Positions 1-18,125 of a stretch of 64,000 nucleotides of DNA are shown here, piece after piece. Under the pieces are notes generated by a model that was not told the DNA's origin, did not search any database, and worked only from the letters and a program-made list of their open reading frames with translations. The stretch's first letter is position 1; every line of letters begins with the position of its first letter. Source of the DNA: an uncultured Clostridia bacterium. GTDB taxonomy: Bacteria; Bacillota; Clostridia; Oscillospirales; Acutalibacteraceae. Position numbers and translations under genes: made by a program. The stretch is taken from contig CANQGK010000007.1 of the NCBI GenBank assembly GCA_947623175.1, positions 1-64,000 on the forward strand, in the 5' to 3' direction.

Positions 1-291
1 TGCGACCGCATTGCCGAGGGTGAAACCCGCAACTGCCAGGACTTAGCCGCACAAGAAAACTATAAAAAGAAAATGGCGGACAATGCCGCCATTCCCTTGT
101 ATCAAAAGTATTACAAGCGTTATGCTGCCCGTGTTCGTGTAAGGCAGATTAAAGAGCCCGATTTCAAGAAATGGAAATATCAAGCGATGACAAAGCGCGA
201 CGAATGCTCCGACGGCAAAATCACCCTTGCAGGGTTTGAAGAATGGCTCGAAGCCAGTTTTCCGAATAGGAAGAAGAAACGTAAGGCCTAA
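1..291 (+). CDS. C-terminal part of a mobile-element-associated protein (DUF6076-like), truncated by window start
   Basis: Frame open from base 1 (CDRIAEGETRNCQDLAAQENYKKKMADNAAIP...KWKYQAMTKRDECSDGKITLAGFEEWLEASFPNRKKKRKA*); resembles proteins common in TnpV-type elements. Confidence 0.5.
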   Translation, partial: CDRIAEGETRNCQDLAAQENYKKKMADNAAIPLYQKYYKRYAARVRVRQIKEPDFKKWKYQAMTKRDECSDGKITLAGFEEWLEASFPNRKKKRKA

Positions 292-457
292 ATTTGTAAA
301 TCTCAGCTGAAATCATCTAGGATTTTATGACGTTCACGCTATGTTGATAAAAGATCATATACTATTTTTATTGGACTCAATACAAACCATAACACATCGG
401 CGGAAAAAGCATAAAACTATTGCGATGCATAAGAAAATGCATCTTATCAAAAGTTCA

Positions 458-1729
458 TCAAATATACATATCACCACGGATAATGCTATCTAAACGTTCC
501 TGAACAATAGTGCCATCCGCTTCATCCCAAATGCTTTTAAGATTGTCTATGACCTTTTTATTTTCTTTATCCGACAAAAGCTCAGGAGCAGCAATGTAAA
601 GTAATATTAATTCAATTAATGTAGCGTTGCCCATAACCATTTTCTTAGCAACATCGTCCCAAATAATCTTTTTCCATAAACGATTTTGTATCCATAACAA
701 ATCCTTTGGAATTGAGTGTATTATTTCTGAATATGATGTTTGATATTTTTCTTTTATTCTCACCGCAACTCTAGCAAAAGGATACAATGCAATAGGTCTA
801 AAGAAAATGCAACCTCCGTCAGAATTTCTATATTCTCCCACTTTTGCATTAGGATTCTTTATCTCAGAACAATGATCTAATATAGCTTTCCAAAAGCATT
901 TGCATTCTTCGGTGAACGCTGCAATAATATTGTTAGATGGCCTATGCCTAATATACTCATTAATTTTCGCTCGTCCTCTAACAATTTTTTCTTCAAGACC
1001 AATAACATCTATATCCTTAACATATAACCATAGTAATTCTTTGTTGCATTCGTAATAAGTTATAATTGTTGTAAGTGCCATATCGTTAGTTTCTGGTATG
1101 GATTTGTTTTTTGAATCTAAAATTCTACCGTCAACGAACAAATCTGTATTATCTAACAAATTTCTAGAGGCGATTGCAACAACATCGTCTTCATCTAACG
1201 CAATAATATCTCTTAATGAAACAGGCTTTGCGTAGCGATTTAATGTGCTAAACATCCTTCTTGTTCTCTGCATACCCGTTTCATCTTTTGAATGGCCAAT
1301 AAAAATGACCGGAACTCGTTCTTCTTCCATTGTCGGATTATCTTCAATTGCTTTTTTAATGCCCGCAACGCGATGTTGACCATCTACAGGAAATATTTTG
1401 ACATCATCAGTTAAGGTGATAACCCCTAAGTTATAGTTATCTTCTCCTTGTTCGTCTTCGATCCTGATTTCATTCCATTTAGGCTGCCCGTCATATACTG
1501 CGAGTATTAACGAGTTGAAAAATCTTTCACTCTGAGTTTCTAAATAATTAGCAATACTTTTATAGTTTGAAGTAATGCTTCTTTGAATCATCCCGCTTAA
1601 TAAATCGGAATGATGAAGTTCATCATCAATCGGACGTACATAACGCGATACTTCTTTAAAACTAAGGGAACTTACATAGTAAAACCATATTCCCATTTTT
1701 GAACGAATTGCTGGTATTTTCAGTGACAT
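458..1729 (-). CDS. dndB: DndB-like DGQHR-domain protein of DNA phosphorothioation systems
   Basis: 423 aa with PVDGQHRVAGIKKAI motif and VPVIFIGH; lies at the end of a dnd-like operon. Confidence 0.8.
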   Translation of the reverse strand: MSLKIPAIRSKMGIWFYYVSSLSFKEVSRYVRPIDDELHHSDLLSGMIQRSITSNYKSIANYLETQSERFFNSLILAVYDGQPKWNEIRIEDEQGEDNYNLGVITLTDDVKIFPVDGQHRVAGIKKAIEDNPTMEEERVPVIFIGHSKDETGMQRTRRMFSTLNRYAKPVSLRDIIALDEDDVVAIASRNLLDNTDLFVDGRILDSKNKSIPETNDMALTTIITYYECNKELLWLYVKDIDVIGLEEKIVRGRAKINEYIRHRPSNNIIAAFTEECKCFWKAILDHCSEIKNPNAKVGEYRNSDGGCIFFRPIALYPFARVAVRIKEKYQTSYSEIIHSIPKDLLWIQNRLWKKIIWDDVAKKMVMGNATLIELILLYIAAPELLSDKENKKVIDNLKSIWDEADGTIVQERLDSIIRGDMYI

Positions 1730-1740
1730 AATAATTCTCC

Positions 1741-2265
1741 TTAAAACAGATTTTGTTCGGGTAAAGTATAGTGATCTGGTATCTGTGAATTCATTGGAGG
1801 TATAATCACTCTTAGCAATTCCCGTTCAACCTTGTCGATAAAATCATCTGTGTCATTGATAGGCAAATAATATAAATATAGGCCTCTACCCCAACGACTT
1901 ATCATACGAGCAACCTTAGGACGTGTATCATTTATATATGTGGCACATCTCTTACGAAGGCTATAGTTTGTTGCACGGTGAGCTCTCCCTATATACATAA
2001 TATATCTATGATTTTTCTGTATTATATCTGGTTTTAGCATGAATATGTATATGCCGCCACAATCGTTGGGAAGTTCGCATATACTATTGTTTACCGCTGT
2101 TCCATCTTCGTTTAAATATTTTATATATTTCCAACCAGATGATACAACTGCTTTTATTCCTTCATCCATAGTATCCCATTTATCAATATTTAATTCAAAG
2201 TCGACTTGGAACAATATCGACTCTTCAAATATATCTACATTTTGAGGCATAGCGATTACCACCAT
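1741..2265 (-). CDS. Small GIY-YIG nuclease-like protein
   Basis: GGIYIFMLKP...YIMYIGRAHRATNYSLRKRC...VERELLRVIIPPMNSQIPDH matches GIY...YIG, Arg, Glu and Asn core positions. Confidence 0.65.
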   Translation of the reverse strand: MVVIAMPQNVDIFEESILFQVDFELNIDKWDTMDEGIKAVVSSGWKYIKYLNEDGTAVNNSICELPNDCGGIYIFMLKPDIIQKNHRYIMYIGRAHRATNYSLRKRCATYINDTRPKVARMISRWGRGLYLYYLPINDTDDFIDKVERELLRVIIPPMNSQIPDHYTLPEQNLF

Positions 2266-2327
2266 AAATTAAATAATTATACATACCTTTTCATATATTG
2301 CTAGAATTACAGTCGTTCTGCATTTTT

Positions 2328-3392
2328 TCAATCATCAATACCATATCTATGTCGAAGTTTGCGAAGTGCATTAGCTTCAATCTGACGAACACGCTCTCTT
2401 GTAACACAGAATTTTTGACCGATTTCGTCAAGCGTATATTCATGGTCATAACTAATACCATAGCGAAGACGAAGCACCTCTTGTTCACGGTATGTAAGTT
2501 TTGATAGTTTTATTTGGAGGTCATCTGTGTCAAAGTTCCTTTCAACTAACGAAATCATATTTTCATACCCGATACCATCATCTGAGAACAACAACTCATT
2601 CTCTTCATTTTCCGACAATTCTTCAATGCTTTCATAAGGAGCAAGATAGTCAAATAACCGCCTCGCCTCAACTAAAGTACATTCAAGCTCGGTTGCGATG
2701 CTCTGCAAAAGTTCAATACCCGGCTCAGTTCTATCTTCAATATCGCCGAAATAATCTTCCATATTATCATAGATAGCGAAAAGCTTGTCTTTAATATGAA
2801 TCGGAAAATAAACTGACGGATTAAGGGTTGGAGCATCTCTCATTATGTACTGTCTTACCCATAGTGGAAAGTATGATGCGAAGTTTTCCTGACGGGCAGT
2901 TTCGTATTTATCTATCGATACATGAAGACCCAGCATAGCGTTCTGAATAGTTTCATCCAAGGGAAGATGATATCTTTTTGCGTGTACTAATGCGATTCTC
3001 ACAGCCACCTTCATATACATCTCAAAAATACGGTTCCGAGCATATGCATTTTTGAGTTTCACCTGCGGCATCAGATTCATCCACTCTCTGTGCTGTGGCG
3101 GTTTTATTCCACGAATGTATTCAATGAAGTCCGTGAAGGTATCATCTATCTCCAAAACCTCTGAAAACACTTCTTCGTAATCAACATTGCTTCTGTCGTA
3201 CTCGTTCTCTTCATCATCGATCAAGGCATCATCGCGAATAATGACACCTTTCGACAAAAGATGATCACAGATATACTCTACATCGAATAACGAAATTCCA
3301 TTCTCTTCAAGTACATCAAAGATATGATCTTCGGAGATAAAACCGTGCACGGTATATTCCTGATATAATTTTTCAATGATTCCCTCGTGCAC
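2328..3392 (-). CDS. Sigma-70-like protein with N-terminal region 1.1-like part, region 2 and region 4
   Basis: LTYREQEVLRLRYGIS...YTLDEIGQKFCVTRERVRQIEANALRKLRHR is a canonical region 4; SYFPLWVRQYIMRD resembles region 2.4. Confidence 0.8.
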   Translation of the reverse strand: MHEGIIEKLYQEYTVHGFISEDHIFDVLEENGISLFDVEYICDHLLSKGVIIRDDALIDDEENEYDRSNVDYEEVFSEVLEIDDTFTDFIEYIRGIKPPQHREWMNLMPQVKLKNAYARNRIFEMYMKVAVRIALVHAKRYHLPLDETIQNAMLGLHVSIDKYETARQENFASYFPLWVRQYIMRDAPTLNPSVYFPIHIKDKLFAIYDNMEDYFGDIEDRTEPGIELLQSIATELECTLVEARRLFDYLAPYESIEELSENEENELLFSDDGIGYENMISLVERNFDTDDLQIKLSKLTYREQEVLRLRYGISYDHEYTLDEIGQKFCVTRERVRQIEANALRKLRHRYGIDD

Positions 3393-3422
3393 GGTTTCAC
3401 CCCCCTTTCGTACCTCATGTGA

Positions 3423-3956
3423 TTAATTCTTTGCTAACTGGCACAGATCAACAATACTCTCGGTTGTAACCGACTCGTTGTACCTCTCATCAAACTCTTC
3501 CATAAAGTCGTAGAGATTTGTCAAATAATCTTCAGCACTTCTTGCAGGTTCAATCAATTTTTCAAAAAGTACCTCAACACCGCCTCTAACATAGTTTTCG
3601 TAGAGTTCTTCGTCCGGTGCTGCCTTTTCTTGTCCGTAATAACGGAAGGCCTTGTTGATTCGCTCGTTAAAATCAGGTTCGTTCTTTTCGTCAAGCAACA
3701 TAATCAATCGATAGTTAAAAACCAGGTTCTGCTGCTCTTTTATAAGCTTGTCCGGGAATATCTTAGTTGCATCTCCGGTCTTATCAAGCTCTGCTTTTCT
3801 CTGATATAAAAAGCCGATAATAGGAGCAATCGCATAAACATCATAGTTGGTATTGAAGAGCTTATGATGCTTATCGTCATATTCCGCCGTAAGTTTCACA
3901 ACATATTCAGCGTGTTTTCCTCTAAAAGAATATTCTTTATCAAACATCATTCTCAC
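3423..3956 (-). CDS. Uncharacterised 177-aa protein in dnd-like operon
   Basis: Start overlaps the stop of the dndD-like gene; no recognisable catalytic motif. Confidence 0.7.
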   Translation of the reverse strand: MRMMFDKEYSFRGKHAEYVVKLTAEYDDKHHKLFNTNYDVYAIAPIIGFLYQRKAELDKTGDATKIFPDKLIKEQQNLVFNYRLIMLLDEKNEPDFNERINKAFRYYGQEKAAPDEELYENYVRGGVEVLFEKLIEPARSAEDYLTNLYDFMEEFDERYNESVTTESIVDLCQLAKN

Positions 3957-5938
3957 CTCGTAACCAAATTAGTTTCAAATTCGTTCTTCTTATCAAATTC
4001 AAAACGGCTGCCAACCTTATCGCCCATATAGGTTTCTGCTAGTTCACCGTCAGTATCCTTAATGAAAATTATAACCTGCTCTGCAACCTTGGGAAGCGCA
4101 TCACAAACAGTACGGATATGTGTCTTATCAAATGCAGAAAGCGGAGCATCCATCACAAGTGGATAAGGCTCGGACACAAGCATTTCATTTTCAGGATTCT
4201 GACTCTGACGAGCCATTTTGATAACACCGGCAATAAATGCAAAGATAACCGAAATACTCTGAGCTGTGGATGTCTCAACGTCCTCATTAACACCCTCAAA
4301 CTCGTTGACGATAACCTGAATGTTGTACTTCTCATCAATACTGAGAGAGAACCCACCGTTATAAATGCTCTTGAATATTTCGTTGACTGTTTGCTCAAGT
4401 TGCTGCCTGGTTTCGGTTTCCTTTTCCTGATAGAGAGAAAGCAGTGTAGCGTACATATACTGAGCATATGCCTTATAAACTTCAATCTTACGGTTGTTCT
4501 CATCCTTCAATGAGAGTTCCTTACGTTCAATTTCTCTGCGCTCTTTATCTCTTTCAAGCAGAGCCTGATTACGGTCAAGGTCTCGTCTTTCAACAGAAAG
4601 ATTGCGAAGTGCTCTTTCATAGGTGCTTAAACGCGCCTGTAACTCACCAACATTTTTCATCTTTTCTAGTTTCTCACGAATAATGTTGATTTGATTCTGG
4701 TATCCGGTGTATGTATTATCAAACTCTCTGATGAAGCCAAACTTAGTAGAAATATCCTCAAAGAGTGTATCAGAACTCTTGCACCTTAGTTCGCACTCAC
4801 GAACAAACTGGCCGATTGATGTGCCGATAGACTGCGGCGGAATAAACTCAAGCAGGTCATTTAATTCCTTGTATGCTTCATTACCGAATTCAATATCGGC
4901 ACCGCAAATGCACTTTTTACGCTTAATAAGAAATTCAATAGTCTTAGCATGGATATAAGGAATACCTGTGTCAATCTTATCTGCAGCAGCAAGTTGAGAA
5001 AGAGCGTCGCTCATCATCTTCTTGGCAAAATAAGAATGCGCATTATTGTTAAACACTTTTAGCAGTGAATCCTCACTGGAAGCTTTTTTTGCAACCAGTT
5101 CTTTTATCTTTCGAACAAGCTCGTCACGTTCTTTTGCAAGAATCTCACTATCCTTGTTTAGACGAATTTCTTCCTCAAGCTCTGCCTTCTTATCTGTAGC
5201 AATAGCTTCTTCGCCGTCAATAGCAGCAAGTCTTTCTTCAATGGCACGAAGTTTTTCTTCGTACTCTTCAATTTCCTTGGTATACTGAGCTATCTTACTG
5301 TCACTCTTAGTGTCATAACTCTCGTTGTACATCTTGATAACCGAGTTACGGCCACCAAGATGGTCAAGCGCAGATTGAAACGCACTAAGACCGAGAAGAC
5401 TGCGAACTGCTTGGGCAAATTCAGCACTCTTGCCTTTACGGATTTCCTTACTCATATTGCCTATTCGCTCACCATCAAAGAAGAAATACTTTGAAAGTTC
5501 TTTAGGAAGAATTTCCTTCATACGTAGTTCCGTTTCCCCATCGGGAACATACTCACGTTGGCCGTCAGCGTTCTTGTAAGCAATCTTGAAGGTGGTCTGG
5601 TTATGTCTTCTGATAGAACCGGAATTATCCTTTGAATAAAGCTGCTCACGGATACAAAGATATTCGATATTATTGTGTTGAAGTGCCAACTCTACACGGA
5701 CCTTCTCCTCGTTTCCCGGTAGCATCGATTGTGCAGTTGCCTTGCATAGCATAGACTTGTCATCGAAGTCAGTGTCCCCATAAAGGCACCAGGTAAATGC
5801 TTGAGCAAGAGTAGTTTTACCGGAGCCGTTTTCACCCATAATTACGGTTACATTACGAACCGGATCGGTTGAGAAGGTAATCTCCTGTTCACCTTTGAAT
5901 TGGCGGAAGTCCTTCAGCTTTAACGATTTTAATAGCAT
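3953..5938 (-). CDS. dndD: DndD-like SMC/Rad50-type ATPase
   Basis: MLLKSLKLKDFRQFKGEQEITF...VTVIMGENGSGKTTLAQAF (Walker A), coiled coil, CxC hinge (KRKKCICGAD), PLVMDAPLSAFD (Walker B). Confidence 0.8.
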   Translation of the reverse strand: MLLKSLKLKDFRQFKGEQEITFSTDPVRNVTVIMGENGSGKTTLAQAFTWCLYGDTDFDDKSMLCKATAQSMLPGNEEKVRVELALQHNNIEYLCIREQLYSKDNSGSIRRHNQTTFKIAYKNADGQREYVPDGETELRMKEILPKELSKYFFFDGERIGNMSKEIRKGKSAEFAQAVRSLLGLSAFQSALDHLGGRNSVIKMYNESYDTKSDSKIAQYTKEIEEYEEKLRAIEERLAAIDGEEAIATDKKAELEEEIRLNKDSEILAKERDELVRKIKELVAKKASSEDSLLKVFNNNAHSYFAKKMMSDALSQLAAADKIDTGIPYIHAKTIEFLIKRKKCICGADIEFGNEAYKELNDLLEFIPPQSIGTSIGQFVRECELRCKSSDTLFEDISTKFGFIREFDNTYTGYQNQINIIREKLEKMKNVGELQARLSTYERALRNLSVERRDLDRNQALLERDKERREIERKELSLKDENNRKIEVYKAYAQYMYATLLSLYQEKETETRQQLEQTVNEIFKSIYNGGFSLSIDEKYNIQVIVNEFEGVNEDVETSTAQSISVIFAFIAGVIKMARQSQNPENEMLVSEPYPLVMDAPLSAFDKTHIRTVCDALPKVAEQVIIFIKDTDGELAETYMGDKVGSRFEFDKKNEFETNLVTR

Positions 5939-6111
5939 TGTACTTCCTCCTCAATCATCTTTTTTATTTTCTTTGCCATCTCAGTATCATTGAACTGCTT
6001 TGTCTTGATATTCGTTTTTTCACGAACGATTATGCGTTGCAGCATACGCTGTGCCTTTTGAACATCTATTTCAACACCGTTCACTTCCATTTTTTCAGAA
6101 GCCATAGCCAT
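5929..6111 (-). CDS. 60-aa uncharacterised protein in dnd-like operon
   Basis: Overlaps both neighbouring genes in the operon. Confidence 0.55.
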   Translation of the reverse strand: MAMASEKMEVNGVEIDVQKAQRMLQRIIVREKTNIKTKQFNDTEMAKKIKKMIEEEVQCY

Positions 6112-8302
6112 AATCCTCCTCTTCGTTATTCCAATTTAATTCTTGTATTCCATATGCATCCTTAATCTCATCAATGAGACTTGCGGATTCAACCATATTA
6201 ACAGCAATACGGGAAAACTCCTCAGCTCTCCTCAATTCATTTTTTACAAGTGTTGAATTCCGTTTGACCTGCGTCTCTGTCAGCGAGGTTACCGACTCGG
6301 TATCGTATGGCAAGGTGATGAAATCATAAATTTCCGCATATTCCTTGCCCTCTGCTAGTCTCAGCACACGACCGCGTCTTTGGATATACTCCTTAGGGTT
6401 GGTCGTACTTGCTAAAATGAACGCCGTTTTTATCTTCGGTATGTTGACACCTTCATCAAGACATTTAATGGCGATAAGAACCTTCAATGTATCACCGGCA
6501 GAGAATTCCCGTTTGAGAACCTCACGCTCTTCAACACTTTCCTTTGATGTAAACTGTGACACTTCCATACCGAGCTTATTGCCCAGCAGGTCGGTCACTG
6601 CATCAATCTGTCTGATATCCTCACTGTCAACATCAGTACGGTCTTGATTTTGCTCAAGTCCTTTAGTCGCACCGCAATAAACAAGAATGTGTTTATCGTG
6701 GATATACGGATGAATAACCTCTTCGAGCATTGTCAACTTGTTCTTTGCACCGGCAACGATTCGAGAACGCTTAAGTGCAAGTTTTTCTCCCCTGCTGCTT
6801 AGCTTCATCTTGCCGTTCTTACCCTTCATAATACACTTTCCGATTTCATAACTGAGATTATCGTATGCCTCAAGTTCTTCCGCGGTAAGTGTAACAACGA
6901 TGGGATAGTATTTATACTTAGTTAGTTTCTTCTCTTCAATTGCTCGGTCAAGAGTATATTCAATACACTTCTCGCCGAAGAAATCATATAGTTTAGCCGT
7001 TCCCTCCTCGTCATTATGCCGGTCGAGGGTTGCTGACAATGCTAAACGGTATTTGTAATTATCATAGAGCAGACAACTTAAGTACGGCGCGCCGAAGTTA
7101 TGAGCTTCGTCTACCATTAAGAGTGTGTCCGACTTTATCTTTGCTAACTGAGTTTGAACATAGTCAGAACTGAAGGTTGCATTGGTGCAGATAAAGCAGA
7201 AGAATTCTTTTCCTCTCACCTTTAACTTTTGGTCTCGGATTGCATCCTTCAAACGCTTTGGCCAATCCTTTTGCGAGGAATCACTATATCCGATTATCGG
7301 GTCAATATTGAACTTTAAAATATCCTCTACCCATTGCTCGACAAGGTGCTGATAAGGACAGACAATAATTGCTGCCAGCTTATGCCCTATATTCTTGCTC
7401 AGGGTTGTCAGAGCTCCAAGTCCCGTATAGGTCTTACCGGTACCGGTGGCCATATCAAAGATACCCCTATAATCACGCTTCTGCCATTCATTAATGGCTT
7501 CATCCTGATAATCATGCAGTTTGAACCACTCAGGAAATTTTGGACCGTATTCTGTATAGATACCCAAATCCGTATGCAAAACTGTATCGATATCAGGTGC
7601 GTATTCCTTTTTATCAATCTCAAAGTCCGGTACAGAGCGTTTATACTTTTCAATGATTTCTTGCTTCAATTCGGGGAAATCGATTATCTTGATATTCGGC
7701 TCGGTATCATTCCAAATAGATGCAAAGGCATTTTCCTTTGCAATCACTCGATCCTCTTCGTCCTTCCAAGAACAGTAAACATCTATAGTTTCATAGTTGA
7801 GAGTCATTGCTGTAGCCGACTCATTCATAGACCCTGCAAATGCAACTCTGTTCCCTTCCTCGTCAGTGATAATTCCCATCTTCTCATGGTACATTCCCAT
7901 ACGGTCGGAGTCCTCGGTAAAGGCAATCTTGATATCCAGAACATTGTCAGAAATAAGGTTTGCCAAAAGATTTAGTCTTGCCTTTTCAAAAGGCGTCTTA
8001 CCTTCTGTCATTTCTCTGCGGATTGCTTCCTTAACAACCTGATCTCTCATTGCATATCCGCTTTTAATTGCCTCGATGTCTTCATCAGACAGATACGGAG
8101 ATGCAACTAACTGGATTTTACCACCATTCTTTGCAAGTTCAGATATACCCTTCGATATCTCTACCAAAGAAGAAGAGGAGAAAAAACCAACTGCTCTTTG
8201 ATATTTTACGGCTTGGCTAAGTAATGGAATATAAAAGTCCTTTGCAACACTGTCGAGCAGAGAACGATATTCTTTTTTTATATCGAGTTCCTGAAAACTC
8301 AC
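6095..8302 (-). CDS. Phosphorothioation-system restriction-type helicase with N-terminal PLD-like nuclease domain
   Basis: YHEKMGIITDEEGNRVAFAGSMNES (PLD HxK...GS-N-E), FDMATGTGKTYTG (Walker A), MVDEAHNFGAP (DEAH), IQRRGRVLR motif VI. Confidence 0.8.
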   Translation of the reverse strand: MSFQELDIKKEYRSLLDSVAKDFYIPLLSQAVKYQRAVGFFSSSSLVEISKGISELAKNGGKIQLVASPYLSDEDIEAIKSGYAMRDQVVKEAIRREMTEGKTPFEKARLNLLANLISDNVLDIKIAFTEDSDRMGMYHEKMGIITDEEGNRVAFAGSMNESATAMTLNYETIDVYCSWKDEEDRVIAKENAFASIWNDTEPNIKIIDFPELKQEIIEKYKRSVPDFEIDKKEYAPDIDTVLHTDLGIYTEYGPKFPEWFKLHDYQDEAINEWQKRDYRGIFDMATGTGKTYTGLGALTTLSKNIGHKLAAIIVCPYQHLVEQWVEDILKFNIDPIIGYSDSSQKDWPKRLKDAIRDQKLKVRGKEFFCFICTNATFSSDYVQTQLAKIKSDTLLMVDEAHNFGAPYLSCLLYDNYKYRLALSATLDRHNDEEGTAKLYDFFGEKCIEYTLDRAIEEKKLTKYKYYPIVVTLTAEELEAYDNLSYEIGKCIMKGKNGKMKLSSRGEKLALKRSRIVAGAKNKLTMLEEVIHPYIHDKHILVYCGATKGLEQNQDRTDVDSEDIRQIDAVTDLLGNKLGMEVSQFTSKESVEEREVLKREFSAGDTLKVLIAIKCLDEGVNIPKIKTAFILASTTNPKEYIQRRGRVLRLAEGKEYAEIYDFITLPYDTESVTSLTETQVKRNSTLVKNELRRAEEFSRIAVNMVESASLIDEIKDAYGIQELNWNNEEEDYGYGF

Positions 8303-8306
8303 AGCA

Positions 8307-8597
8307 TCACACCACCTTATGCTTATATTCGGCTAATGTCGGAAATCTACTTCCGTTTGAAAATTCATAATACTTGCGAAGAGCATTTGAATTATTACCG
8401 TTATGATCGTTTGTTTCCTGCTTAACTCTAATAAGCGTTTCATACATCTTATCATCATCGGAAACAATCACATCAAGATCTACGCCAAGTTCTCTTTCAA
8501 TTAGTCTTGCCTTACTGAGTCTTGAATTGACGGCCTTCATTTTGCTCTTAATTGATTCATCAGACAGCAAGTATTCTTCAAAATCTCTTTCTCTCAT
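8307..8597 (-). CDS. 96-aa uncharacterised protein in dnd-like operon
   Basis: Tightly spaced between helicase and cysteine desulfurase genes. Confidence 0.6.
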   Translation of the reverse strand: MRERDFEEYLLSDESIKSKMKAVNSRLSKARLIERELGVDLDVIVSDDDKMYETLIRVKQETNDHNGNNSNALRKYYEFSNGSRFPTLAEYKHKVV

Positions 8598-8605
8598 ATA
8601 CTCAC

Positions 8606-9781
8606 CTATGAATTCAATTCAATATAATCGAGCGCAGCTTCTAAAACATCAAAGTCTTCATCAGTGTTAAAGTAGCTTACGCTGAATCTAACAGTTCCTG
8701 AAGGAAAAGTACCAATGAATTTATGTGCAGTCGGTGCACAGTGAAGTCCGGTTCTGACAGCAACATTCTGTTCGCTGAGAATCTGCCCTATATTATCGCT
8801 ACCATATCCATCAAACAAACACGAAACGACACCTATCGACTCTGCATCGATAGTATCAATAATCCTGATATTCTCATACCTTGAAAGAAGTTCAACAAGA
8901 CGCTTAAAGTTTTCCTGCTCTTTCTCATAGATATTTTGAATACCTGTTTCTTTAATCCATTTAAGAGAGGCATTTAATCCTGCAACGGCAGCAATATCAG
9001 GACTTGCAACCTCATATCGCTCCGGAACACTTTCCGGTAACGCTTGATTAGCAGATTCCACACCGGTACCGCCAAACAAAAGCGGTTGAGGTTTTATTGC
9101 AAAACTGCTGATAACACCTGCAACGCCAAGCGGCGAGTACAATGTCTTATGTCCTGCAAACACGGCAAAATCTATATCCTCACCACTTAGGTCGGTATCA
9201 ACAAGGCCCGCTGTTTGGCACATATCAACGATATTAATAGACCCAAACTCTTTTGATAGGTGACAAAGCTCCTTAATCGGAGATACCACACCGCAGACAT
9301 TACTCGCATGGCTTACTACCATCCAATTAGGCTTTTTCTCAGCAAACTGATTACGAATCCTTGCAATATCATAGGTCATTGTCACCTTGTCAAAACAGAG
9401 CGTTTCAACCTGAATATCATACATCGACTGCAAATGATAAAGAACACGGGTAACTGCATTATGCTCAAAAGGAGAAATGTAAACCGTGTAGTTATCGTTA
9501 ATAAGCAATCCTCTTAGAATAAGGTTTATTGCCTCTGTTGCAGTATGAGTATAAACAACATTCTTTGCAGGACAATGAAACAGTTCTAAAAGCAGTTCTC
9601 TTGTTTCCTGAACGAGAGCCGATGCTCTGGAAGCGAGCTTATGCTGACCCCTGCCAACATTCACGCCGCACTCACGGTAGAATTGATCTGTAAAATTATA
9701 TACGCATTCCGGTTTCGGAAATGTTGTTGCAGCATTATCAAAGTATGCCACCTTTTCCATGCATCTCACTCCTTTCAACAA
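8606..9781 (-). CDS. dndA: DndA/IscS-like cysteine desulfurase (start possibly 9760, MEKVAYFDNAATT)
   Basis: YFDNAATTFPKPE; FAGHKTLYSPLGVAG PLP lysine region; VRTGLHCAP. Confidence 0.8.
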   Translation of the reverse strand: MLKGVRCMEKVAYFDNAATTFPKPECVYNFTDQFYRECGVNVGRGQHKLASRASALVQETRELLLELFHCPAKNVVYTHTATEAINLILRGLLINDNYTVYISPFEHNAVTRVLYHLQSMYDIQVETLCFDKVTMTYDIARIRNQFAEKKPNWMVVSHASNVCGVVSPIKELCHLSKEFGSINIVDMCQTAGLVDTDLSGEDIDFAVFAGHKTLYSPLGVAGVISSFAIKPQPLLFGGTGVESANQALPESVPERYEVASPDIAAVAGLNASLKWIKETGIQNIYEKEQENFKRLVELLSRYENIRIIDTIDAESIGVVSCLFDGYGSDNIGQILSEQNVAVRTGLHCAPTAHKFIGTFPSGTVRFSVSYFNTDEDFDVLEAALDYIELNS

Positions 9782-12700
9782 AGCTTTTCAAGAATTTCAA
9801 TAAGGATCTGTCTCTTCTCCTGTTCAGTAATGGACTGACCCATTTCGTCAATAGAATTGGTAATTTCATTATAGAGTAGTTTGGCTCTGTTGCTGTATTC
9901 GCTTCTGTTAAAGGTCTTGACTACCTCTCTGCCCTCACTATCAGTTGTGATCAACTTATAGGAATCAGCAGCGGAAGTTTCGTCAATAATCTGCGAGTCG
10001 TACTCCTCAATAGTTTCTTTAAAAACAGTAAGGTCTTTGATGAAGATTGCAATAGTTCTTTCGTTCCAGTCCTCTACTCTAAGAGCAGTTACTGCCTTAG
10101 CAAGGCGCTGTGTGAAGGTTGTTTCGTCATTGGTAATCGTCTTCATCAAATCAAGAATCTGATTCTCACTGTTCGCAAATAGATGCTGTATAGTTGTCTC
10201 CTTCAAAGAAGAATACCAATCCTGAATGATTGAAGTAAGCGAACCTCTTACATCCTGGCCTTTGGGAGTAAAAAGGATCTTAAGATCAGAAACAAGTGCT
10301 TTAAGCAGCGATACAATAGCAACGTCATACTCTTTTTTTGTCTGAGCGATATTATCAACTACATCAGCACTAAACTCTTTAAATCCAAAGAGCGCAAACA
10401 CCTTTTCAAACAAGTATTCTCTCGGGTTAATATCAAGCTGCTTCAAACTGTTTACAAATTTACGGTGGCTAGCGGAAATAGTCTTAAACTCTTCCTTACC
10501 TTTATAAGTCTTTGTCATTTCCTTGGCGAACTTTGGCAAAGACATATACCAGCGATTCATAGCAGAAACGATATAAGCAAAGCTATTATATACTTTTTCC
10601 TGCTCGTGAATAAACTCTTCAAACAATTGTTCGAGTTGAGCCAGATATGCAGTTTTTTCCTCGTTCCAGTCCTCAAGAACAACTGAATAATTGCTTGGGT
10701 TGTCATTGATTCCGTTAAGCAAATCTGCAGTTATTTTCTGCTCCGAATTACCCTTTTTAATAACCAGGTTGCTACGGTTCAGATGGATAATAGCAGCAAT
10801 ATAAATCGGAATAACACCGGTCTTAAGACCGATACCATATTCAGGTTTTGTCAGACGATCATACAATGTTGCGAAGTTCTGCTCACCATTAATACCTGCA
10901 TTAGCAAAGAAGGTCTGAATAGTGCAGAGCATATACTTCATATTCTCGTCTTCAGGTGCAACTACAATTTCAGGTGCTTCTGCGACATTCTTTACAACAC
11001 CTGTCTGCACAAGGGTGCTTCTCATAATCGAAACATCCTGACCCGTACCGGAAAGTCCAAGATTCGGTTCAAGCTCAGTGCTCAGCAGTCCATTAAGGAG
11101 CTTTGCTCTGCTGTTGATAGCCACTGTTGGCAAAATATTTTTGTTGATAGACTCATTATTAATAATCGGAGCATGTGGGTAGACTTTCTCACAAATCTCA
11201 GAGAGAAGAGCTGACATCTGAGCCTTACGGAAGACAGCAACCTTCTTGCCAGCATAGTAATAGTCAGCACCACCGGTCTCGGGTCGAGCATAAGAAAAAA
11301 TGAACGAGCCGATAACTTCTTCGAGATCCTCAATATAAATCTCATATTCATCTTTCAAAAGTTCATCGTCTACAACGAGGTTTTTAAGTTCACAAACTGC
11401 ACTGTATTCAAAAGCGACCTTCTCAATATAGATAAACTTCTTAGGCAAGCAGAATACAACTCTTTCCCCGTATGTATCGGATGTAATCTTCTTTGCAATC
11501 TTCGCAATATCTTCCTTATTTTCAGGAATTACTGCATATATCACACCGTCAGCCATTGTATCCGAGATTTTTAAATTCCAATCTTCTGTGGACCAAAATT
11601 CCTTACTGTCAATGAAAAGAAAATCAAAATAACGGGTAATCTCGTGCTCGTCGTTGTATCTGGTAGGATACATATAACTGTCGAAAGAAGAGTTATTGAG
11701 AACATCCTTTACTCTTAAAGTTGCCTTATTACTCTCTATCCTTTTTTCGATTTCACCGGGAATATCAACACCGCTGCTCTCTTTGAGCTTCAAGTAGTTA
11801 TTGCTTCTCTTGAGATAAACAATGCAATCCTTGTTTATAAGTTCTTCAAGTGCATTGCTGATTTCCTTTGTATCTGTAACACTCTCACGAAAGGCATCAA
11901 CGATGATGTCGTATACAGGAGGCAGTTTCTCATACTGCTCAACCATGTAAATTAAGGAAATAGTTTTGATAATCCTCGCGTGAATAGAACCACCGTCAAG
12001 CTTCTGTAGAATATTAGAAGTGAGTTTATAAATTTTATGAATCTCACTGGTATAAACCTCTTTTCGGAAAAGGGGTTCAAAATAATCGTACAGATAATCA
12101 GGTGTCAATAACGGGAACTCACCGTCTGCACTCTCAAGGAAAGAAGACAGAGTATGCTTTTCCTGAGAGGACAAAAAAGTAAACAAGGTTCTTTCGTTTT
12201 GAGCAACTTTTTCAGAAAGACGCGGCAGAATAAAGGTCGATACCGGATGCAAAGGATAGCAACCGTAAATAGCAGAGTTCACGCCTTCCGTATCCTTGCC
12301 GTCGATCAGACCGTTTGCAACATAGCGTTCCTTGAGATCCTCAAGCTGTGGCTTGTATTTAGATACAAAATCCTTCCAGAAATCAGGATCCTTCTTGATA
12401 ACAGCAGAAATAATTTCATACATCTGCGCAAAGTTGTTGTGAAGTGTTGTATGCTTAAAGCGACCGGACACACCTCTCCAACCGTCTACTTTCTCTTTAG
12501 GCAGATTGTTGTCGATATAGTTTGAGATATCCTTATGGCAAATGAGCATAAGGTGCATCTGCTTTTTACCACTACGTACACATTTCTCTGCAAAATCCTG
12601 CAACAGCTTAATATCACTGATTGTGGCGTTACCTATGCTCGATTCAAGATATTTACTAAACTCATCATAAACAATGTAAACTCCGTCATACCCGACCTCA

Positions 12701-13395
12701 CATAGCTTGTCTACAACCTTTTCGTAGAGCTCCACAACATCGAAACCAAGGAAAGGATTGAAACTACTGCCGGAAGTCAGGCTCGGATATAATTCGACGA
12801 ATTTTTCATACGCCTCAACATTGTATTCCTTTAAAGAAAGAATGAACTGTTCAATAGGTTCATTTAAGGCTTCTAAAAACTTATTATAGGTTTCAGGGTA
12901 ATCTTTCTTCCAACTCTCAATCGCATTGACAGACGCCTTAAAATGAGTTTCAGGCATAATGTCGCTGAGGTTTTCGTCATTAAGTGCCTGTTGCAAAGCA
13001 AAAAGGAATGACTGAGTAAGACTTGCGCTACTGCCTCCGACAACAATGGGAAGCAGCTTTCTTCCACTGTCAATAAACGCATTCGTATAGTCATAGAGTT
13101 TCGGATTGCTTTTCTTCATCTTTTCGAGCAAATTAGCAAAAAGCGCCTTATCTTTCTTATAGAGAAGAGAAAGCAAAACAAGAATAATATGAGATTTTCC
13201 ACGTCCGTAGGCACCAATAAGGATTCTTGCTCTTTCAGTAGAATTCGGCGCCGTACTCAGCATAACATCCTCAATGATGTCTAACGAGGACATGGTAGGA
13301 ATAAATCCGGAAATCTTACCCGTGTTATTCAGATCATACGCGATATTTACAGAAGTCTGAAAACCTTTTGCTACATCTATTTTATTGTTAAACAC
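9775..13395 (-). CDS. 1206-aa P-loop ATPase, BrxC/PglY-like
   Basis: RILIGAYGRGKSHIILVLLSLL Walker A, GVYIVYDEFSKYLE Walker B; size and layout resemble BREX BrxC/PglY ATPases. Confidence 0.6.
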   Translation of the reverse strand: MFNNKIDVAKGFQTSVNIAYDLNNTGKISGFIPTMSSLDIIEDVMLSTAPNSTERARILIGAYGRGKSHIILVLLSLLYKKDKALFANLLEKMKKSNPKLYDYTNAFIDSGRKLLPIVVGGSSASLTQSFLFALQQALNDENLSDIMPETHFKASVNAIESWKKDYPETYNKFLEALNEPIEQFILSLKEYNVEAYEKFVELYPSLTSGSSFNPFLGFDVVELYEKVVDKLCEVGYDGVYIVYDEFSKYLESSIGNATISDIKLLQDFAEKCVRSGKKQMHLMLICHKDISNYIDNNLPKEKVDGWRGVSGRFKHTTLHNNFAQMYEIISAVIKKDPDFWKDFVSKYKPQLEDLKERYVANGLIDGKDTEGVNSAIYGCYPLHPVSTFILPRLSEKVAQNERTLFTFLSSQEKHTLSSFLESADGEFPLLTPDYLYDYFEPLFRKEVYTSEIHKIYKLTSNILQKLDGGSIHARIIKTISLIYMVEQYEKLPPVYDIIVDAFRESVTDTKEISNALEELINKDCIVYLKRSNNYLKLKESSGVDIPGEIEKRIESNKATLRVKDVLNNSSFDSYMYPTRYNDEHEITRYFDFLFIDSKEFWSTEDWNLKISDTMADGVIYAVIPENKEDIAKIAKKITSDTYGERVVFCLPKKFIYIEKVAFEYSAVCELKNLVVDDELLKDEYEIYIEDLEEVIGSFIFSYARPETGGADYYYAGKKVAVFRKAQMSALLSEICEKVYPHAPIINNESINKNILPTVAINSRAKLLNGLLSTELEPNLGLSGTGQDVSIMRSTLVQTGVVKNVAEAPEIVVAPEDENMKYMLCTIQTFFANAGINGEQNFATLYDRLTKPEYGIGLKTGVIPIYIAAIIHLNRSNLVIKKGNSEQKITADLLNGINDNPSNYSVVLEDWNEEKTAYLAQLEQLFEEFIHEQEKVYNSFAYIVSAMNRWYMSLPKFAKEMTKTYKGKEEFKTISASHRKFVNSLKQLDINPREYLFEKVFALFGFKEFSADVVDNIAQTKKEYDVAIVSLLKALVSDLKILFTPKGQDVRGSLTSIIQDWYSSLKETTIQHLFANSENQILDLMKTITNDETTFTQRLAKAVTALRVEDWNERTIAIFIKDLTVFKETIEEYDSQIIDETSAADSYKLITTDSEGREVVKTFNRSEYSNRAKLLYNEITNSIDEMGQSITEQEKRQILIEILEKLC

Positions 13396-13413
13396 GGCAA
13401 CAGCCTCCTGTCT

Positions 13414-14292
13414 TTATTTATTGATTGCCTTATAATACTCTTCCACACACTCAAGGAAGGTCATCGGCTTAGCAATGCGGATAACATCAAGTCCTGCTGT
13501 ACGAACAACCTTGATGTATCCCATCAATTCGATTTTGTAGAGTAATGCTGTCAATGTGATTATATCAAGATTAAATATCTTACCGGCATTACATACATCA
13601 TTCTGAATTGCAGAAATCTTAATTTCCTCTTCGCCGTTCGCCTGATCGAGAATAACAGCAAGCAGAACTAGAGGATGAAGAGTATCTTTCTTCGGAACAG
13701 ATTTCTTATAAAGCTTTTCCTTTCGGTTGCTGATATTAATCAATCCGAGTTCACCAAGAGGACAATCAATATTGCTCTCCGGCTGAACTTTTTCAGGAGA
13801 AGATTTGATACGGGGTACATATGTGTTGATGATGCAGTTATAATCATCTTCCAACGATCTTTCAGATACCTCTTCACCGTTAATCATAATGTAGTTAGAG
13901 AGCTGCTTTACAAAATCCTCCTTGTTAAACTCACTCTGTTTGAACTCATTGTAAAAGAAGTACCAGGCAGTTGCTTCGTCTTTATTAGATGCAAGCATGT
14001 AATGCAGTAACCAAAGTGTACCCATTTCCTCAATGTAGGGGTCGTTCTTAAAAACGATCTCTCCAAAGGGTGTAAATGACTGCTCTCTACGTCCTGCATT
14101 TGGCTCCGTGGTAAGTTTGACTGCCTGCAGCCAATACCTCAATGCCTTTACCATGTTTGCACCGATTCCGAGAATATCCATAGGGTTACCTTTTGCTCCC
14201 ATAAATACTGTCGGCTCTATTTTCACATTTCGCATACCTTTATTTAACCATCCTTTACGGATGAAAAAGGTATCGTGTGCTCTAAACTTCAT
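13414..14292 (-). CDS. DUF4007 family protein
   Basis: KFRAHDTFFIRKGWLNKGMRNV...NPMDILGIGANMVKALRYWLQA; family known beside PAPS-reductase/dnd genes. Confidence 0.75.
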   Translation of the reverse strand: MKFRAHDTFFIRKGWLNKGMRNVKIEPTVFMGAKGNPMDILGIGANMVKALRYWLQAVKLTTEPNAGRREQSFTPFGEIVFKNDPYIEEMGTLWLLHYMLASNKDEATAWYFFYNEFKQSEFNKEDFVKQLSNYIMINGEEVSERSLEDDYNCIINTYVPRIKSSPEKVQPESNIDCPLGELGLINISNRKEKLYKKSVPKKDTLHPLVLLAVILDQANGEEEIKISAIQNDVCNAGKIFNLDIITLTALLYKIELMGYIKVVRTAGLDVIRIAKPMTFLECVEEYYKAINK

Positions 14293-14304
14293 ATTCTTGC
14301 TCCT

Positions 14305-16023
14305 TTAGTCCTTAGTCTTCAGGTAACGGTCCATTAGGCAACCGCCATCTAAGTACTTTGCAGTAACACACATCTTGCACCTTTTGCATTTCTTATCGTT
14401 GATGTAATAGGTATCACCGATAATAGAGATGGCACCGAATCTACAAAGGGACTCACACTTTAAGCACTTACGGCAAGCATTAAATTTCTTGATCTGATAA
14501 CCAATCATTCTCTGCAAGTCATTGTGCTTTGCTACATTCATTGTTTTAACTTTTACCGCATATTCAAATCCGTCCTGTGAGAAGGGTTGAATTGAAATAA
14601 TCGGCACATTAGTCTTAATGTCTACAACGATTGTTTCGTTGATTAACTTGCGACCAAGCTCGGGGGCTATTCTTCCAAAGGGTGTAAACAAACCAATAAG
14701 GCAATCATCTACCGGTCGCTTCAGTTGATATACTTTAGCATTTTCTTCGGTTGTGCAGTTGGTAAATTTAATCTTTACATCAGATGCTGCTGCCACACCG
14801 TTACCACCCTGACGAGCTTTCCACTTGCCAGAGTTAATATACTCTTCGGGGTCGGGCTTTCCGATGCGCTTTGCAAAATCAATCAGGAAACTATGCCACT
14901 TCTCATACTGCTCAGGCATATATATCTGAGAAAGGAATTCTGCACGAATGTTATTGTTCGGGCAACACCAACAGCCAACACGATCGTATCCCAAACGATA
15001 TGCATCATTAAATTCAACTTCTTCACCGAGAAGATAAAGCCAAATATCAATATCTTTCCAGAAGAAGATAGGTGTTGCAACCGTCTGCTGCTGAATCTTT
15101 GTAGACTCAGCATTATCTTCTATTCGGTTGTATTTACTTCTGCTTACGGATTCGCATTTGCGGATGCCGTAGTAAGTCAGAATACTCTTATCTCTGTAAA
15201 GGCTAGAAATAACGCGAGAAATAGGTCCTGTCTTAAACATAAAACAGCACCAACGAAGCATTCTTGCCGGAGGTCCAATGTCCTCACAGACCTCGTAGAA
15301 ATTCTGCTCTTTATTTTTGGCAACCTTGAAGATAGCCTTAGGATTATTCTTCTTAAATCGCTCAGCATATTCAATCGTGAACGGGAACTCAAGGGTGGTA
15401 TTACCGAAGATATGTACAAGACTAGGATCCGAAAGTGCTTTTACCACTAGATCAGCGGTTACCGTGGAATCCTTACCACCGGAAAAGGACAGAACAATGT
15501 TTTCACGAGGGTATTTAGCTGCCGACTCCTGAATAAAGATATTTGCTTCATACTTCAGGTAATCAAGGCGACCTTGGTTCGCTCTGATAAAGGTTGCTAT
15601 GTTCTTATTAAAGAAATCGTAGTTATTCTGTTCCTTGTATTTTTCGAGTTGTTCTCTGATATACGCGGCTGAATACTTCTTATACCACGCAGCAGTTACA
15701 ACTATAGGTTTTCCATCTATATAATAGCGATTATTTGACGCCCATACGCTTTTTTTGATATAGGCAAGTGGCTTGTCCGAGAGAATTTCTAAAAGCAAAC
15801 GCTCTTCCGGGAATACAGGTCTTAAGTCTGCAACTAGATACGATGTATTACCACCACAAAGAGGACAAGTATCACGGTCTGCGCCGTTTACTGCTTTGAT
15901 AAGCGGAACCTTGCATTTATCACACCAGTGCAGTTCATAAGGAATATCTTCCTCGGTCTTTATTCCGCAAACACTGCAAACTTCTTCATCGGTTTCACGG
16001 TTACAATTCTTGCACCACACCAA
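14305..16023 (-). CDS. dndC: DndC-like phosphoadenosine-phosphosulfate-reductase-family protein with N-terminal zinc ribbon and C-terminal ferredoxin-like domain (TTG start)
   Basis: VLSFSGGKDSTVTADLV PP-loop; N-terminal CKNC...CSVC and CDKC...CPLC; C-terminal CRKCLKCESLC...KKCKRCKMC; TTG preceded by GGAGGTGATTA. Confidence 0.8.
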   Translation of the reverse strand: MVWCKNCNRETDEEVCSVCGIKTEEDIPYELHWCDKCKVPLIKAVNGADRDTCPLCGGNTSYLVADLRPVFPEERLLLEILSDKPLAYIKKSVWASNNRYYIDGKPIVVTAAWYKKYSAAYIREQLEKYKEQNNYDFFNKNIATFIRANQGRLDYLKYEANIFIQESAAKYPRENIVLSFSGGKDSTVTADLVVKALSDPSLVHIFGNTTLEFPFTIEYAERFKKNNPKAIFKVAKNKEQNFYEVCEDIGPPARMLRWCCFMFKTGPISRVISSLYRDKSILTYYGIRKCESVSRSKYNRIEDNAESTKIQQQTVATPIFFWKDIDIWLYLLGEEVEFNDAYRLGYDRVGCWCCPNNNIRAEFLSQIYMPEQYEKWHSFLIDFAKRIGKPDPEEYINSGKWKARQGGNGVAAASDVKIKFTNCTTEENAKVYQLKRPVDDCLIGLFTPFGRIAPELGRKLINETIVVDIKTNVPIISIQPFSQDGFEYAVKVKTMNVAKHNDLQRMIGYQIKKFNACRKCLKCESLCRFGAISIIGDTYYINDKKCKRCKMCVTAKYLDGGCLMDRYLKTKD

Positions 16024-17666: not shown

Positions 17667-18125
17667 TTATAATTGCCCATATATGACTTCATTATTTACC
17701 ATTTCTGCCGCTCTGTTTCGAATATTATTCATCCTCCGCACCCACGCCATTGGGTCGGCAGCTTTGAGTTGTTCAGTTACGCCTTCTTTTTCGGCGAGTT
17801 CTTTTACCAGCTGGAGAAAAAGTTGTTGTGCCTGTTCTTCGGTATCGGCGAGGTGGGAATGGAGCTTGCCGGAAGTGAGCAGATTGTAGTAAATCGCTTT
17901 ATGGTACTGCTTTAAGTGTCGCAATCTACGCTGTCCCCATATACCAATGGGACGGTTATCTTTTTCCGCCGGTAATGACAAGTCCGGCAATAGGTAGTCG
18001 CCGGTCTGTGTATAAGTACCGCCGAGTTGTTCAAATAGTGTGTCAGTCATAGTAAAACCTCCTTTGCGCTTATATTGTACAAAGGAGGCGAATAAAAGTC
18101 GAATGTGCGATTTATGAATTTGCAA
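17667..18125 (-). CDS. tnpV: TnpV transposon-encoded protein
   Basis: FEQLGGTYTQTGDYLLPDL...GIWGQRRLRHLKQYHKAIYYNLLTSGKL...WVRRMNNIRNRAAEM. Confidence 0.8.
   Translation of the reverse strand: MQIHKSHIRLLFASFVQYKRKGGFTMTDTLFEQLGGTYTQTGDYLLPDLSLPAEKDNRPIGIWGQRRLRHLKQYHKAIYYNLLTSGKLHSHLADTEEQAQQLFLQLVKELAEKEGVTEQLKAADPMAWVRRMNNIRNRAAEMVNNEVIYGQL

What the first reader, a model, noticed from the sequence alone, without database searches (positions are those of the whole stretch)
458..16023. Compact 12-gene phosphorothioation-like defence operon with BREX-like, sigma-factor and GIY-YIG components
Seen: twelve tightly packed minus-strand ORFs, often overlapping, in transcription order: DndC-like, DUF4007, 1206-aa P-loop ATPase, DndA-like, 96 aa, PLD-helicase, 60 aa, DndD-like, 177 aa, sigma-70-like, GIY-YIG, DndB. 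Known: DndA/C/D with a DndE form the DNA sulfur-modification machinery, DndB is regulatory, and DptFGH, SspE or archaeal Pbe modules act as partner effectors. Here canonical DndE and DptFGH are not recognisable, and the partner set is a BrxC/PglY-like ATPase plus PLD-helicase plus GIY-YIG plus sigma factor. Inference: a variant PT-based defence system, possibly closest to the dnd plus BREX-like architecture described in archaea.
Basis: partly seen in the sequence, partly recalled or inferred. Interest (0 to 1): 0.78.

Follow-up and report, generated by a model that had tools for sequence, protein, structure and literature searches.

The report
Hybrid Ssp–Pbe DNA-sulfur defence operon
A gut-type Clostridia genome carries one operon in which the enzymes that put sulfur on one DNA strand (Ssp) are joined to a different system's DNA-attack module (Pbe) plus its own RNA-polymerase sigma factor; the Ssp–Pbe pairing recurs across many Bacillota as a separate lineage, but its action has not been tested.

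Summary
The twelve ORFs are real and tightly packed (gaps -17 to +62 bp), but the label needs correcting. The first four genes are a single-strand phosphorothioation (Ssp) modification set: SspD/BrxP-like PAPS reductase, SspB (DUF4007), SspC, SspA. The next block is a complete PbeA-B-C-D cassette, and the "missing DndE" is most likely PbeD (177 aa). A 96-aa protein sits between the modules; a sigma factor, a GIY-YIG-like protein and DndB follow.

Surveys of Bacillota found Ssp–Pbe operons in many families. All Ssp-linked PbeA proteins (17 of 17) fall on one side of a single tree branch (97/94 support, 98% of bootstrap trees), apart from Dnd-linked and unlinked PbeA. The papers held list Dnd–DndFGH, Dnd–DndI, Dnd–Pbe, Ssp–SspE, Ssp–SspFGH and BREX-4, but not Ssp–Pbe.

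The sigma gene is conserved in one supported sub-clade. GIY-YIG and DndB are an optional pair, cleanly absent from a near-identical operon. In non-Ssp Pbe loci, RpoA-CTD/sigma-region-4 proteins sit directly upstream of PbeA.

Best reading: a restriction system, Ssp marking self and Pbe attacking unmarked DNA, with a dedicated sigma factor. Chemistry and phage defence are inferred, not shown.

The parts
14305..16023 (-). SspD/BrxP-like PAPS reductase (PP-loop SGGKDS) with C-terminal Cys-rich [4Fe-4S]-type tail; first gene of operon
   Evidence: PF01507 1.1e-29; PADLOC BrxP 5.6e-76, SspD 1.4e-13, DndC 4.2e-11; motifs read from sequence
13414..14292 (-). SspB (DUF4007), DNA-binding/nicking subunit of Ssp modification
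   Evidence: PF13182 3.9e-87; PADLOC SspB 4.5e-63
9775..13395 (-). SspC (BrxC/PglY-related AAA+ ATPase; Walker A GAYGRGKS)
   Evidence: PADLOC SspC 5.3e-128, BrxC 4.9e-48
8606..9781 (-). SspA/DndA-type cysteine desulfurase
   Evidence: TIGR01977 3.2e-116 above cut-off; PADLOC SspA 1.6e-33
8307..8597 (-). 96-aa protein between the modules; predicted all-helical, weakly like tyrosine-recombinase core-binding (SAM-like) domains
   Evidence: No family hit above cut-off; AF2 pLDDT 91; weak Foldseek hits XerA and integron integrase, TMq about 0.53, E>1; conserved in L002, L018, L016/L050
6095..8302 (-). PbeA: HKD/PLD nuclease fused to SF2 helicase
   Evidence: PADLOC PbeA 1.6e-250; TIGR04095 4.9e-150 (below its 600-bit cut-off); PLDc_2, ResIII, Helicase_C
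5929..6111 (-). PbeB-position small protein (60 aa)
   Evidence: No HMM hit, but conserved at the same place in L016 (73%), L019 (64%), L017, L020, L023 and others
3953..5938 (-). PbeC: CxC-type ABC ATPase (Zn-hook CICG)
   Evidence: PADLOC PbeC 1.3e-112 against DndD 1.5e-34; CICG motif in the sequence
3423..3956 (-). PbeD-like (DndE cognate; two ribbon-helix-helix-like units predicted)
   Evidence: PADLOC PbeD 5.5e-4, TIGR04062 3e-4, below cut-off; AF2 pLDDT 84 with two strand-helix-helix units; the few high-TM PDB matches are DndE 4lrv/5wtu (TMt 0.52-0.60, E not significant)
2328..3392 (-). Full-length SigA/RpoD-type sigma-70 factor
   Evidence: Sigma70_r4 5.1e-18; RpoD model PRK09210 aligned 5-348; family profile matches SigA structure 7l7b over positions 6-364, E 1.1e-66; 29% identical to the genome's own RpoD-like gene
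1741..2265 (-). GIY-YIG-like small nuclease (optional gene)
   Evidence: Motif GGIYIF...YIMYIGRA...R...E...PxxN by eye; no Pfam, PADLOC or PDB support; absent in L003
458..1729 (-). DndB / DGQHR-domain protein (optional gene)
   Evidence: PF14072 8.2e-29; TIGR03187 1e-27 above cut-off; absent in L003
16024..16084 (-). 61-bp leader before sspD with inverted repeat ATGTCCG-TTTTAT-CGGACAT and RBS ggagg
   Evidence: Read from sequence; not tested for function

Best explanation
The operon is a hybrid phosphorothioate restriction-modification system. SspA, SspD, SspB and SspC are proposed to move sulfur from cysteine onto one strand of host DNA at a short motif (inferred from the Ssp family). PbeC-PbeD (Zn-hook ABC ATPase with its DndE-type DNA reader) are proposed to scan DNA, and PbeA (HKD nuclease-SF2 helicase), held in check by the small PbeB, to attack or stall DNA lacking the mark (inferred from Pbe studies). 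The sigma factor is proposed to direct RNA polymerase to this operon or a small regulon, so that expression can be kept low and switched on by infection or stress (least certain step). DndB and the GIY-YIG-like protein form an optional regulatory/back-up nuclease pair. Shown here: gene content, order, co-inheritance and clade structure. Not shown: PT chemistry, target motif, phage restriction, sigma target.
For: HMM identities of the core genes. Order SspDBCA-PbeABCD repeated in L002, L003, L004, L007, L017, L018, L019, L020, L022, L023, L039, with reordered or altered Ssp-Pbe sets in L008/9, L015, L021, L024, L028, L040. In the phylum sample 12 of 21 PbeA+ genomes are Ssp-linked. Ssp-linked PbeA form one side of a branch: 97*; 97/94*, 98% of bootstrap trees after removing long and duplicate rows. 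Within modules distances correlate strongly (SspC-SspB r 0.98, PbeA-PbeC 0.73) and between modules weakly but significantly (PbeA-SspC 0.44, p 0.0025). In G475 (L050/L016) about 35 kb flanked by two copies of a transposase splits the operon inside the 96-aa gene, with SspDBCA on one side and PbeABCD-sigma on the other, so the unit was once contiguous there. Mostly purifying patterns. No PglZ in the genome.
Against: No experiment. Mantel correlation between modules is modest (PbeC-SspC 0.19, p 0.10), and dS jumps (SspD 0.006 against PbeA 0.27-0.41 between near-identical strains) show that segments recombine, so the pairing could be loose. PbeD and PbeB identities rest on position, weak scores and a predicted fold. 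An adjacent cassette is not proof of functional coupling. The sigma role is inferred from its family only; promoter-like matches were not above the shuffled expectation.
Confidence: 0.75

Rival explanations
1. A variant Dnd (double-strand PT) system with BREX-like, PLD-helicase and sigma partners.
For: DndA, DndB and DndD profiles match and DndB is present.
Against: Apart from DndB, every such gene matches an Ssp, BrxP or Pbe model better (SspA over DndA, PbeC over DndD, BrxP/SspD over DndC); DUF4007 and SspC, which define Ssp, are present; no DndD-DndE pair in the operon.
Confidence: 0.06
2. A BREX type 4 system (PT-based BREX: BrxP, BrxC, DUF4007, cysteine desulfurase, PglZ, BrxL) that lost or swapped its effectors.
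For: The PAPS reductase scores best as BrxP and has the Fe-S tail that type-4 BREX and a subset of SspD share (PMC12839542).
Against: No PglZ in the held genome, while PglZ was found in all 457 type-4 taxa of PMC12839542; SspC scores far above BrxC (5e-128 against 5e-48).
Confidence: 0.12
3. Two or more independent defence systems packed in one island (an Ssp modification set, a Pbe cassette, and stray sigma/GIY-YIG/DndB genes) without functional coupling.
For: Modules recombine (dS mosaic, weak cross-module correlation); GIY-YIG/DndB can be absent; many PbeA have no modification genes within 20-kb windows.
Against: Gene overlaps of 4-17 bp inside the modules and 4-8 bp gaps at the module joint; the same order in many families; Ssp-linked PbeA on one side of a single branch.
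Confidence: 0.12

Closest known systems
SspABCD single-strand PT modification (with SspE or SspFGH effectors)
   Same: SspA, SspB (DUF4007), SspC, SspD homologues in one operon; L035 shows a similar SspDBCA set with SspFGH-like genes in the same host family
   Different: Effector is PbeABCD; no SspE or SspFGH in the operon; SspD carries the BrxP-like Fe-S tail
DndCDEA-PbeABCD of Haloterrigena (PMC6459918) / CxC ABC ATPase-DndE systems (PMC10853773)
   Same: PbeA-PbeB-PbeC-PbeD in the same order, CxC hook, small PbeB-position protein, PbeD-like 177-aa protein
   Different: Modification partner is Ssp, not Dnd; PbeA belongs to a separate lineage; a sigma factor follows PbeD
BREX type 4 (PMC12839542)
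   Same: BrxP-type PAPS reductase, DUF4007, BrxC-related ATPase, cysteine desulfurase
   Different: No PglZ in the genome; Pbe cassette instead
MZA system (MzaA sigma factor)
   Same: The sigma factor's core matches MzaA (1e-34); L008 also carries an MzaB-like gene
   Different: MzaA models are 683-726 aa long and only their C-terminal third matches; here the sigma is free-standing and SigA-like over its full length

Membership tests
SspABCD PT modification | SspB = DUF4007 | tested here: met
   PF13182 3.9e-87
SspABCD PT modification | SspC ATPase | tested here: met
   PADLOC SspC 5.3e-128
SspABCD PT modification | SspD PAPS-reductase-type sulfurtransferase | tested here: met
   PF01507 1.1e-29; SspD 1.4e-13, BrxP subtype 5.6e-76
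SspABCD PT modification | SspA cysteine desulfurase | tested here: met
   PADLOC SspA 1.6e-33; TIGR01977 above cut-off
SspABCD PT modification | Single-strand PT in host DNA | not testable with these tools
   Needs LC-MS or sequencing of native DNA
PbeABCD | PbeA HKD/PLD-SF2 helicase | tested here: met
   PADLOC PbeA 1.6e-250
PbeABCD | PbeC CxC-hook ABC ATPase | tested here: met
   PADLOC PbeC 1.3e-112; CICG in sequence
PbeABCD | PbeD, DndE-type two-RHH protein | tested here: inconclusive
   Weak HMM hits; predicted fold closest to DndE but E not significant; profile comparison with DndE negative
PbeABCD | PbeB small protein between A and C | tested here: inconclusive
   Position, length and conservation fit; no model hit
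DndCDEA-PbeABCD | Dnd modification genes beside Pbe | tested here: not met
   Ssp models beat Dnd models; no canonical DndE in the operon
BREX type 4 | PglZ | tested here: not met
   No PF08665 match in the own genome (draft, 94% complete)
BREX type 4 | BrxL | tested here: inconclusive
   No operon gene matches BrxL; rest of the genome not searched for it
SspE / SspFGH effectors | DUF262-DUF1524 SspE or SspFGH in the operon | tested here: not met
   None in the operon; one GmrSD_N gene elsewhere, on C18
Sigma-70 group 1/2 | Regions 2, 3, 4 and an N-terminal region aligning to SigA | tested here: met
   Family profile aligns to SigA over positions 6-364; Sigma70_r4 above cut-off, Sigma70_r2 just below
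GIY-YIG nuclease | GIY-YIG domain | tested here: inconclusive
   Motif by eye only; no HMM or PDB hit

The most novel reading that the evidence does not exclude
Ssp-Pbe is a distinct, recurrent class of PT restriction system in which RNA-polymerase-derived parts (a free-standing sigma factor after PbeD, or RpoA-CTD/sigma-region-4 proteins directly before PbeA in other Pbe loci) are working components that tie DNA attack to transcription, for example by sensing phage take-over of RNA polymerase or by guiding the scanner to promoters on incoming DNA.
Probability: 0.2. Interest if true: 0.75.

Novelty: new variant of a known kind. Interest (0 to 1): 0.5.

Why it matters
It offers a partner for part of the 'solitary' Pbe cassettes that puzzled the field: PMC6459918 found only 42% of PbeAC near dndCD and, in 2019, did not test for Ssp. 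It shows that an AAA+ (SspC) and an ABC/CxC ATPase (PbeC) can sit in one PT operon, rather than SspC simply replacing the ABC ATPase. It suggests that Pbe lineages are specialised to their modification type, where the literature stresses independent evolution. The repeated presence of sigma and RpoA-CTD domains beside PbeA gives a concrete, testable lead on how these systems are switched on.

Tried and rejected
Profile comparison of PbeD with DndE alignments gave no similarity; the predicted fold gave only weak DndE matches. Idea that the 96-aa gene evolves fast under positive selection: rejected, its raised divergence goes with a high-dS block shared with PbeA (recombination), omega 0.18-0.32; in L003 it has an in-frame stop. 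GIY-YIG relatives in viral contigs: none. Sigma relatives in viral contigs: only generic sigma-70 matches, 23-32% over long stretches, uninformative. Comparison of the window GIY-YIG-like protein with the one in L008: not alignable. Promoter and terminator scan: no excess over shuffles. The genome-contig scan with SspC returned only five close loci, so the wider survey used the genome search. Plasmid records with PbeA relatives were all below 60% identity and were not followed. Two key papers (PMC12914056 on BREX-4 PT; PMC7544218 on CxC ATPases) were not held, so prior mention of Ssp-Pbe there, or in the supplements of PMC10853773, cannot be excluded.
Full report
OBSERVATION. The window is the start of contig C7 of a 2.38-Mb draft genome. 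The twelve minus-strand ORFs are present exactly as described, with successive gaps of 12, 18, -7, 8, 4, -17, -10, -4, 30, 62 and 11 bp. Two other assemblies carry the operon at 97-100% protein identity over nearly all genes (L002 RUG11462; L003 UBA1701, without the last two genes); the 96-aa gene is the least similar (92% and 84%). Most genes show a purifying pattern.

IDENTITY OF THE CORE. The first four genes are the Ssp set: a PAPS reductase (PF01507; PADLOC BrxP 5.6e-76, SspD 1.4e-13), DUF4007/SspB (3.9e-87), SspC (5.3e-128; BrxC 4.9e-48) and the SspA-type cysteine desulfurase. The PAPS reductase has the Cys-rich Fe-S tail that type-4 BREX BrxP and a subset of SspD share. Then come PbeA (1.6e-250), a 60-aa protein in the PbeB place, PbeC (1.3e-112 against 1.5e-34 for DndD; CICG hook) and the 177-aa PbeD-like protein. 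PbeD identity is the weakest link: PADLOC 5.5e-4 and TIGR04062 3e-4, the latter below its curated cut-off, with relatives scoring similarly. AlphaFold2 predicts two strand-helix-helix units (pLDDT 84), and the few high-TM PDB matches are DndE 4lrv and 5wtu (TMt 0.52-0.60), though without significant E-values; a profile comparison with DndE was negative. The assignment agrees with PMC10853773, which re-annotated PbeD as a DndE cognate, PbeC as a CxC ABC ATPase, PbeB as a small protein and PbeA as an HKD-SF2 fusion.

RECURRENCE. PbeA (E <= 1e-80) was searched in samples of 392 class, 399 phylum and 298 order genomes and the surrounding DNA taken out. In the phylum sample 12 of 21 PbeA-bearing genomes have Ssp genes with PbeA, counting G475, where SspB lies 36 kb away on the same strand. 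In the class sample three genomes have both PbeA and DUF4007 and in all three they are neighbours. The order SspD-SspB-SspC-SspA-PbeA-(PbeB)-PbeC-PbeD recurs in L004, L007, L017, L018, L019, L020, L022, L023 and L039. L008, L021 and L040 have a different Ssp order, L015 has its Ssp genes on the PbeD side, L024 has a DUF262 gene between SspC and PbeA, and L028 has shorter PAPS-reductase-like ORFs. A tree of 40 PbeA proteins puts all 19 Ssp-linked ones on one side of one branch (97*); with long and duplicate rows removed, 17 of 17 (97/94*, 98% of bootstrap trees, 0 of 500 shuffles). Dnd-linked and unlinked PbeA lie elsewhere. Within modules genetic distances correlate strongly (SspC-SspB 0.98, SspC-SspD 0.94, PbeC-PbeD 0.83, PbeA-PbeC 0.73), across modules weakly (PbeA-SspC 0.44, p 0.0025; PbeC-SspC 0.19, p 0.10): cassettes can be exchanged, but within the Ssp-linked group.

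A NATURAL SPLIT. In G475 the SspDBCA half ends in the first half of the 96-aa gene followed by a 440-aa transposase gene (L050), and a transposase ORF of the same length and start of sequence precedes the second half of the 96-aa gene, PbeABCD and sigma (L016), with about 35 kb in between that includes microcompartment-like genes by inspection. The ten-gene unit was therefore contiguous there before the insertion, at 46-80% protein identity to the window.

ACCESSORY GENES. (a) The 96-aa protein occurs between SspA and PbeA in the window, L002, L016/L050 and L018; in L003 it carries an in-frame stop. Its predicted fold is all-helical and weakly like recombinase core-binding domains. (b) The sigma factor aligns with SigA along its whole length (positions 6-364 of its profile, 7l7b, 1.1e-66) and is only 29% identical to the genome's own RpoD-like gene, so it is not a recent copy of it. 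It is present in window, L002, L003, L016 and L019, whose PbeA form a supported clade; L020, the next branch, ends at a contig edge after PbeD. (c) GIY-YIG-like and DndB: present in the window and L002, cleanly absent from L003 (about 1.86 kb). Direction (loss or gain) is not known. Elsewhere the end of the operon carries other genes, among them DUF262/GmrSD proteins (L022), a PC4-domain and an RpoA-CTD protein (L004), MzaB-like and GIY-YIG-like genes (L008).

TRANSCRIPTION-TYPE DOMAINS BESIDE PBEA. A profile of the sigma region 4 of four of these proteins, run over 647 ORFs of at least 100 aa in the loci then held, hit 12 proteins: the free-standing sigmas after PbeD (L002, L003, L016, L019), a free-standing one about 4 kb past PbeA (L034), and seven large proteins (636-1334 aa, one cut by a contig end) directly upstream of PbeA in Dnd-linked or unlinked loci (L010, L011, L026, L027, L029, L043, L044), several with RpoA-CTD domains as well. 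Cassette-flank positions make up 17% of those ORFs, and a hypergeometric figure of 4e-10 was computed for all 12. But the rows are related (perhaps four independent lineages) and L034's gene may lie outside the strictly counted positions, so the association is best called suggestive.

HOW IT LIKELY WORKS. From the Ssp literature (PMC8092258 and reviews), SspABCD places PT on one strand; from PMC6459918, PbeABCD blocks virus DNA replication in a PT-dependent way without visible cleavage, while PMC10853773 argues from the HKD domain that PbeA cleaves DNA. I propose self-marking by Ssp, scanning by PbeC-PbeD, attack by PbeA under PbeB control, and regulation by the dedicated sigma, with DndB and the GIY-YIG-like protein optional. 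Only gene content, order, conservation and phylogeny are shown here.

NOVELTY. The held papers list Dnd-DndFGH, Dnd-DndI, Dnd-Pbe, Ssp-SspE, Ssp-SspFGH and BREX-4. PMC7464106 counts strains with PT genes plus pbeA-D without separating dnd from ssp in that count. No held text that I read describes an SspBCD-PbeABCD operon, but supplements and unheld papers could not be read. I therefore call it a new variant of a known kind: both modules are known; the pairing and its coherent lineage appear undescribed.

Noticed in passing
L010:7944-11948, L011:12981-15605, L026:5531-9001, L027:6140-9016, L029:9638-13045, L043:10997-13663, L044:4679-6589: Large proteins with sigma-70 region 4 and often RpoA-CTD domains encoded directly upstream of PbeA in Dnd-linked or unlinked Pbe loci; PADLOC sees PglW- and MzaA-like parts in some.
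   Followed up: partly
L050:10000-11322 and L016:7262-8584: Two copies of a 440-aa transposase gene flank about 35 kb (microcompartment-like genes by eye) inserted inside the 96-aa gene of an Ssp-Pbe operon.
   Followed up: partly
L003:20950-21100 against window 1-2420: Clean presence/absence of a 1.86-kb GIY-YIG plus DndB pair between otherwise near-identical operons.
   Followed up: yes
L003:14799-15089: The 96-aa gene has an in-frame stop in this strain.
   Followed up: yes
L003:5970-7273: IS3-type element inserted between the AAA14/DUF4143 gene and sspD.
   Followed up: no
window 16085-17392: AAA14/DUF4143 ATPase just upstream of the operon, matching PADLOC candidate PDC-S01 (6.7e-191); a TnpV gene lies beyond it at 17667-18125.
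   Followed up: no
L035:6056-19999: In the same host family an SspDBCA set is followed by SspF-, SspG- and SspH-like genes instead of Pbe.
   Followed up: partly
L008:4145-8408: An Ssp-Pbe operon followed by a 332-aa and a 296-aa unknown, an MzaB-like HATPase and a GIY-YIG-like protein.
   Followed up: partly
L004:19698-20995: PC4-domain and RpoA-CTD proteins follow PbeD where the window has its sigma factor.
   Followed up: partly
window 6095-8597 against L002 and L003: Synonymous divergence jumps from 0.006 (sspD) to 0.23-0.41 (96-aa gene, pbeA): recombination inside the operon.
   Followed up: yes
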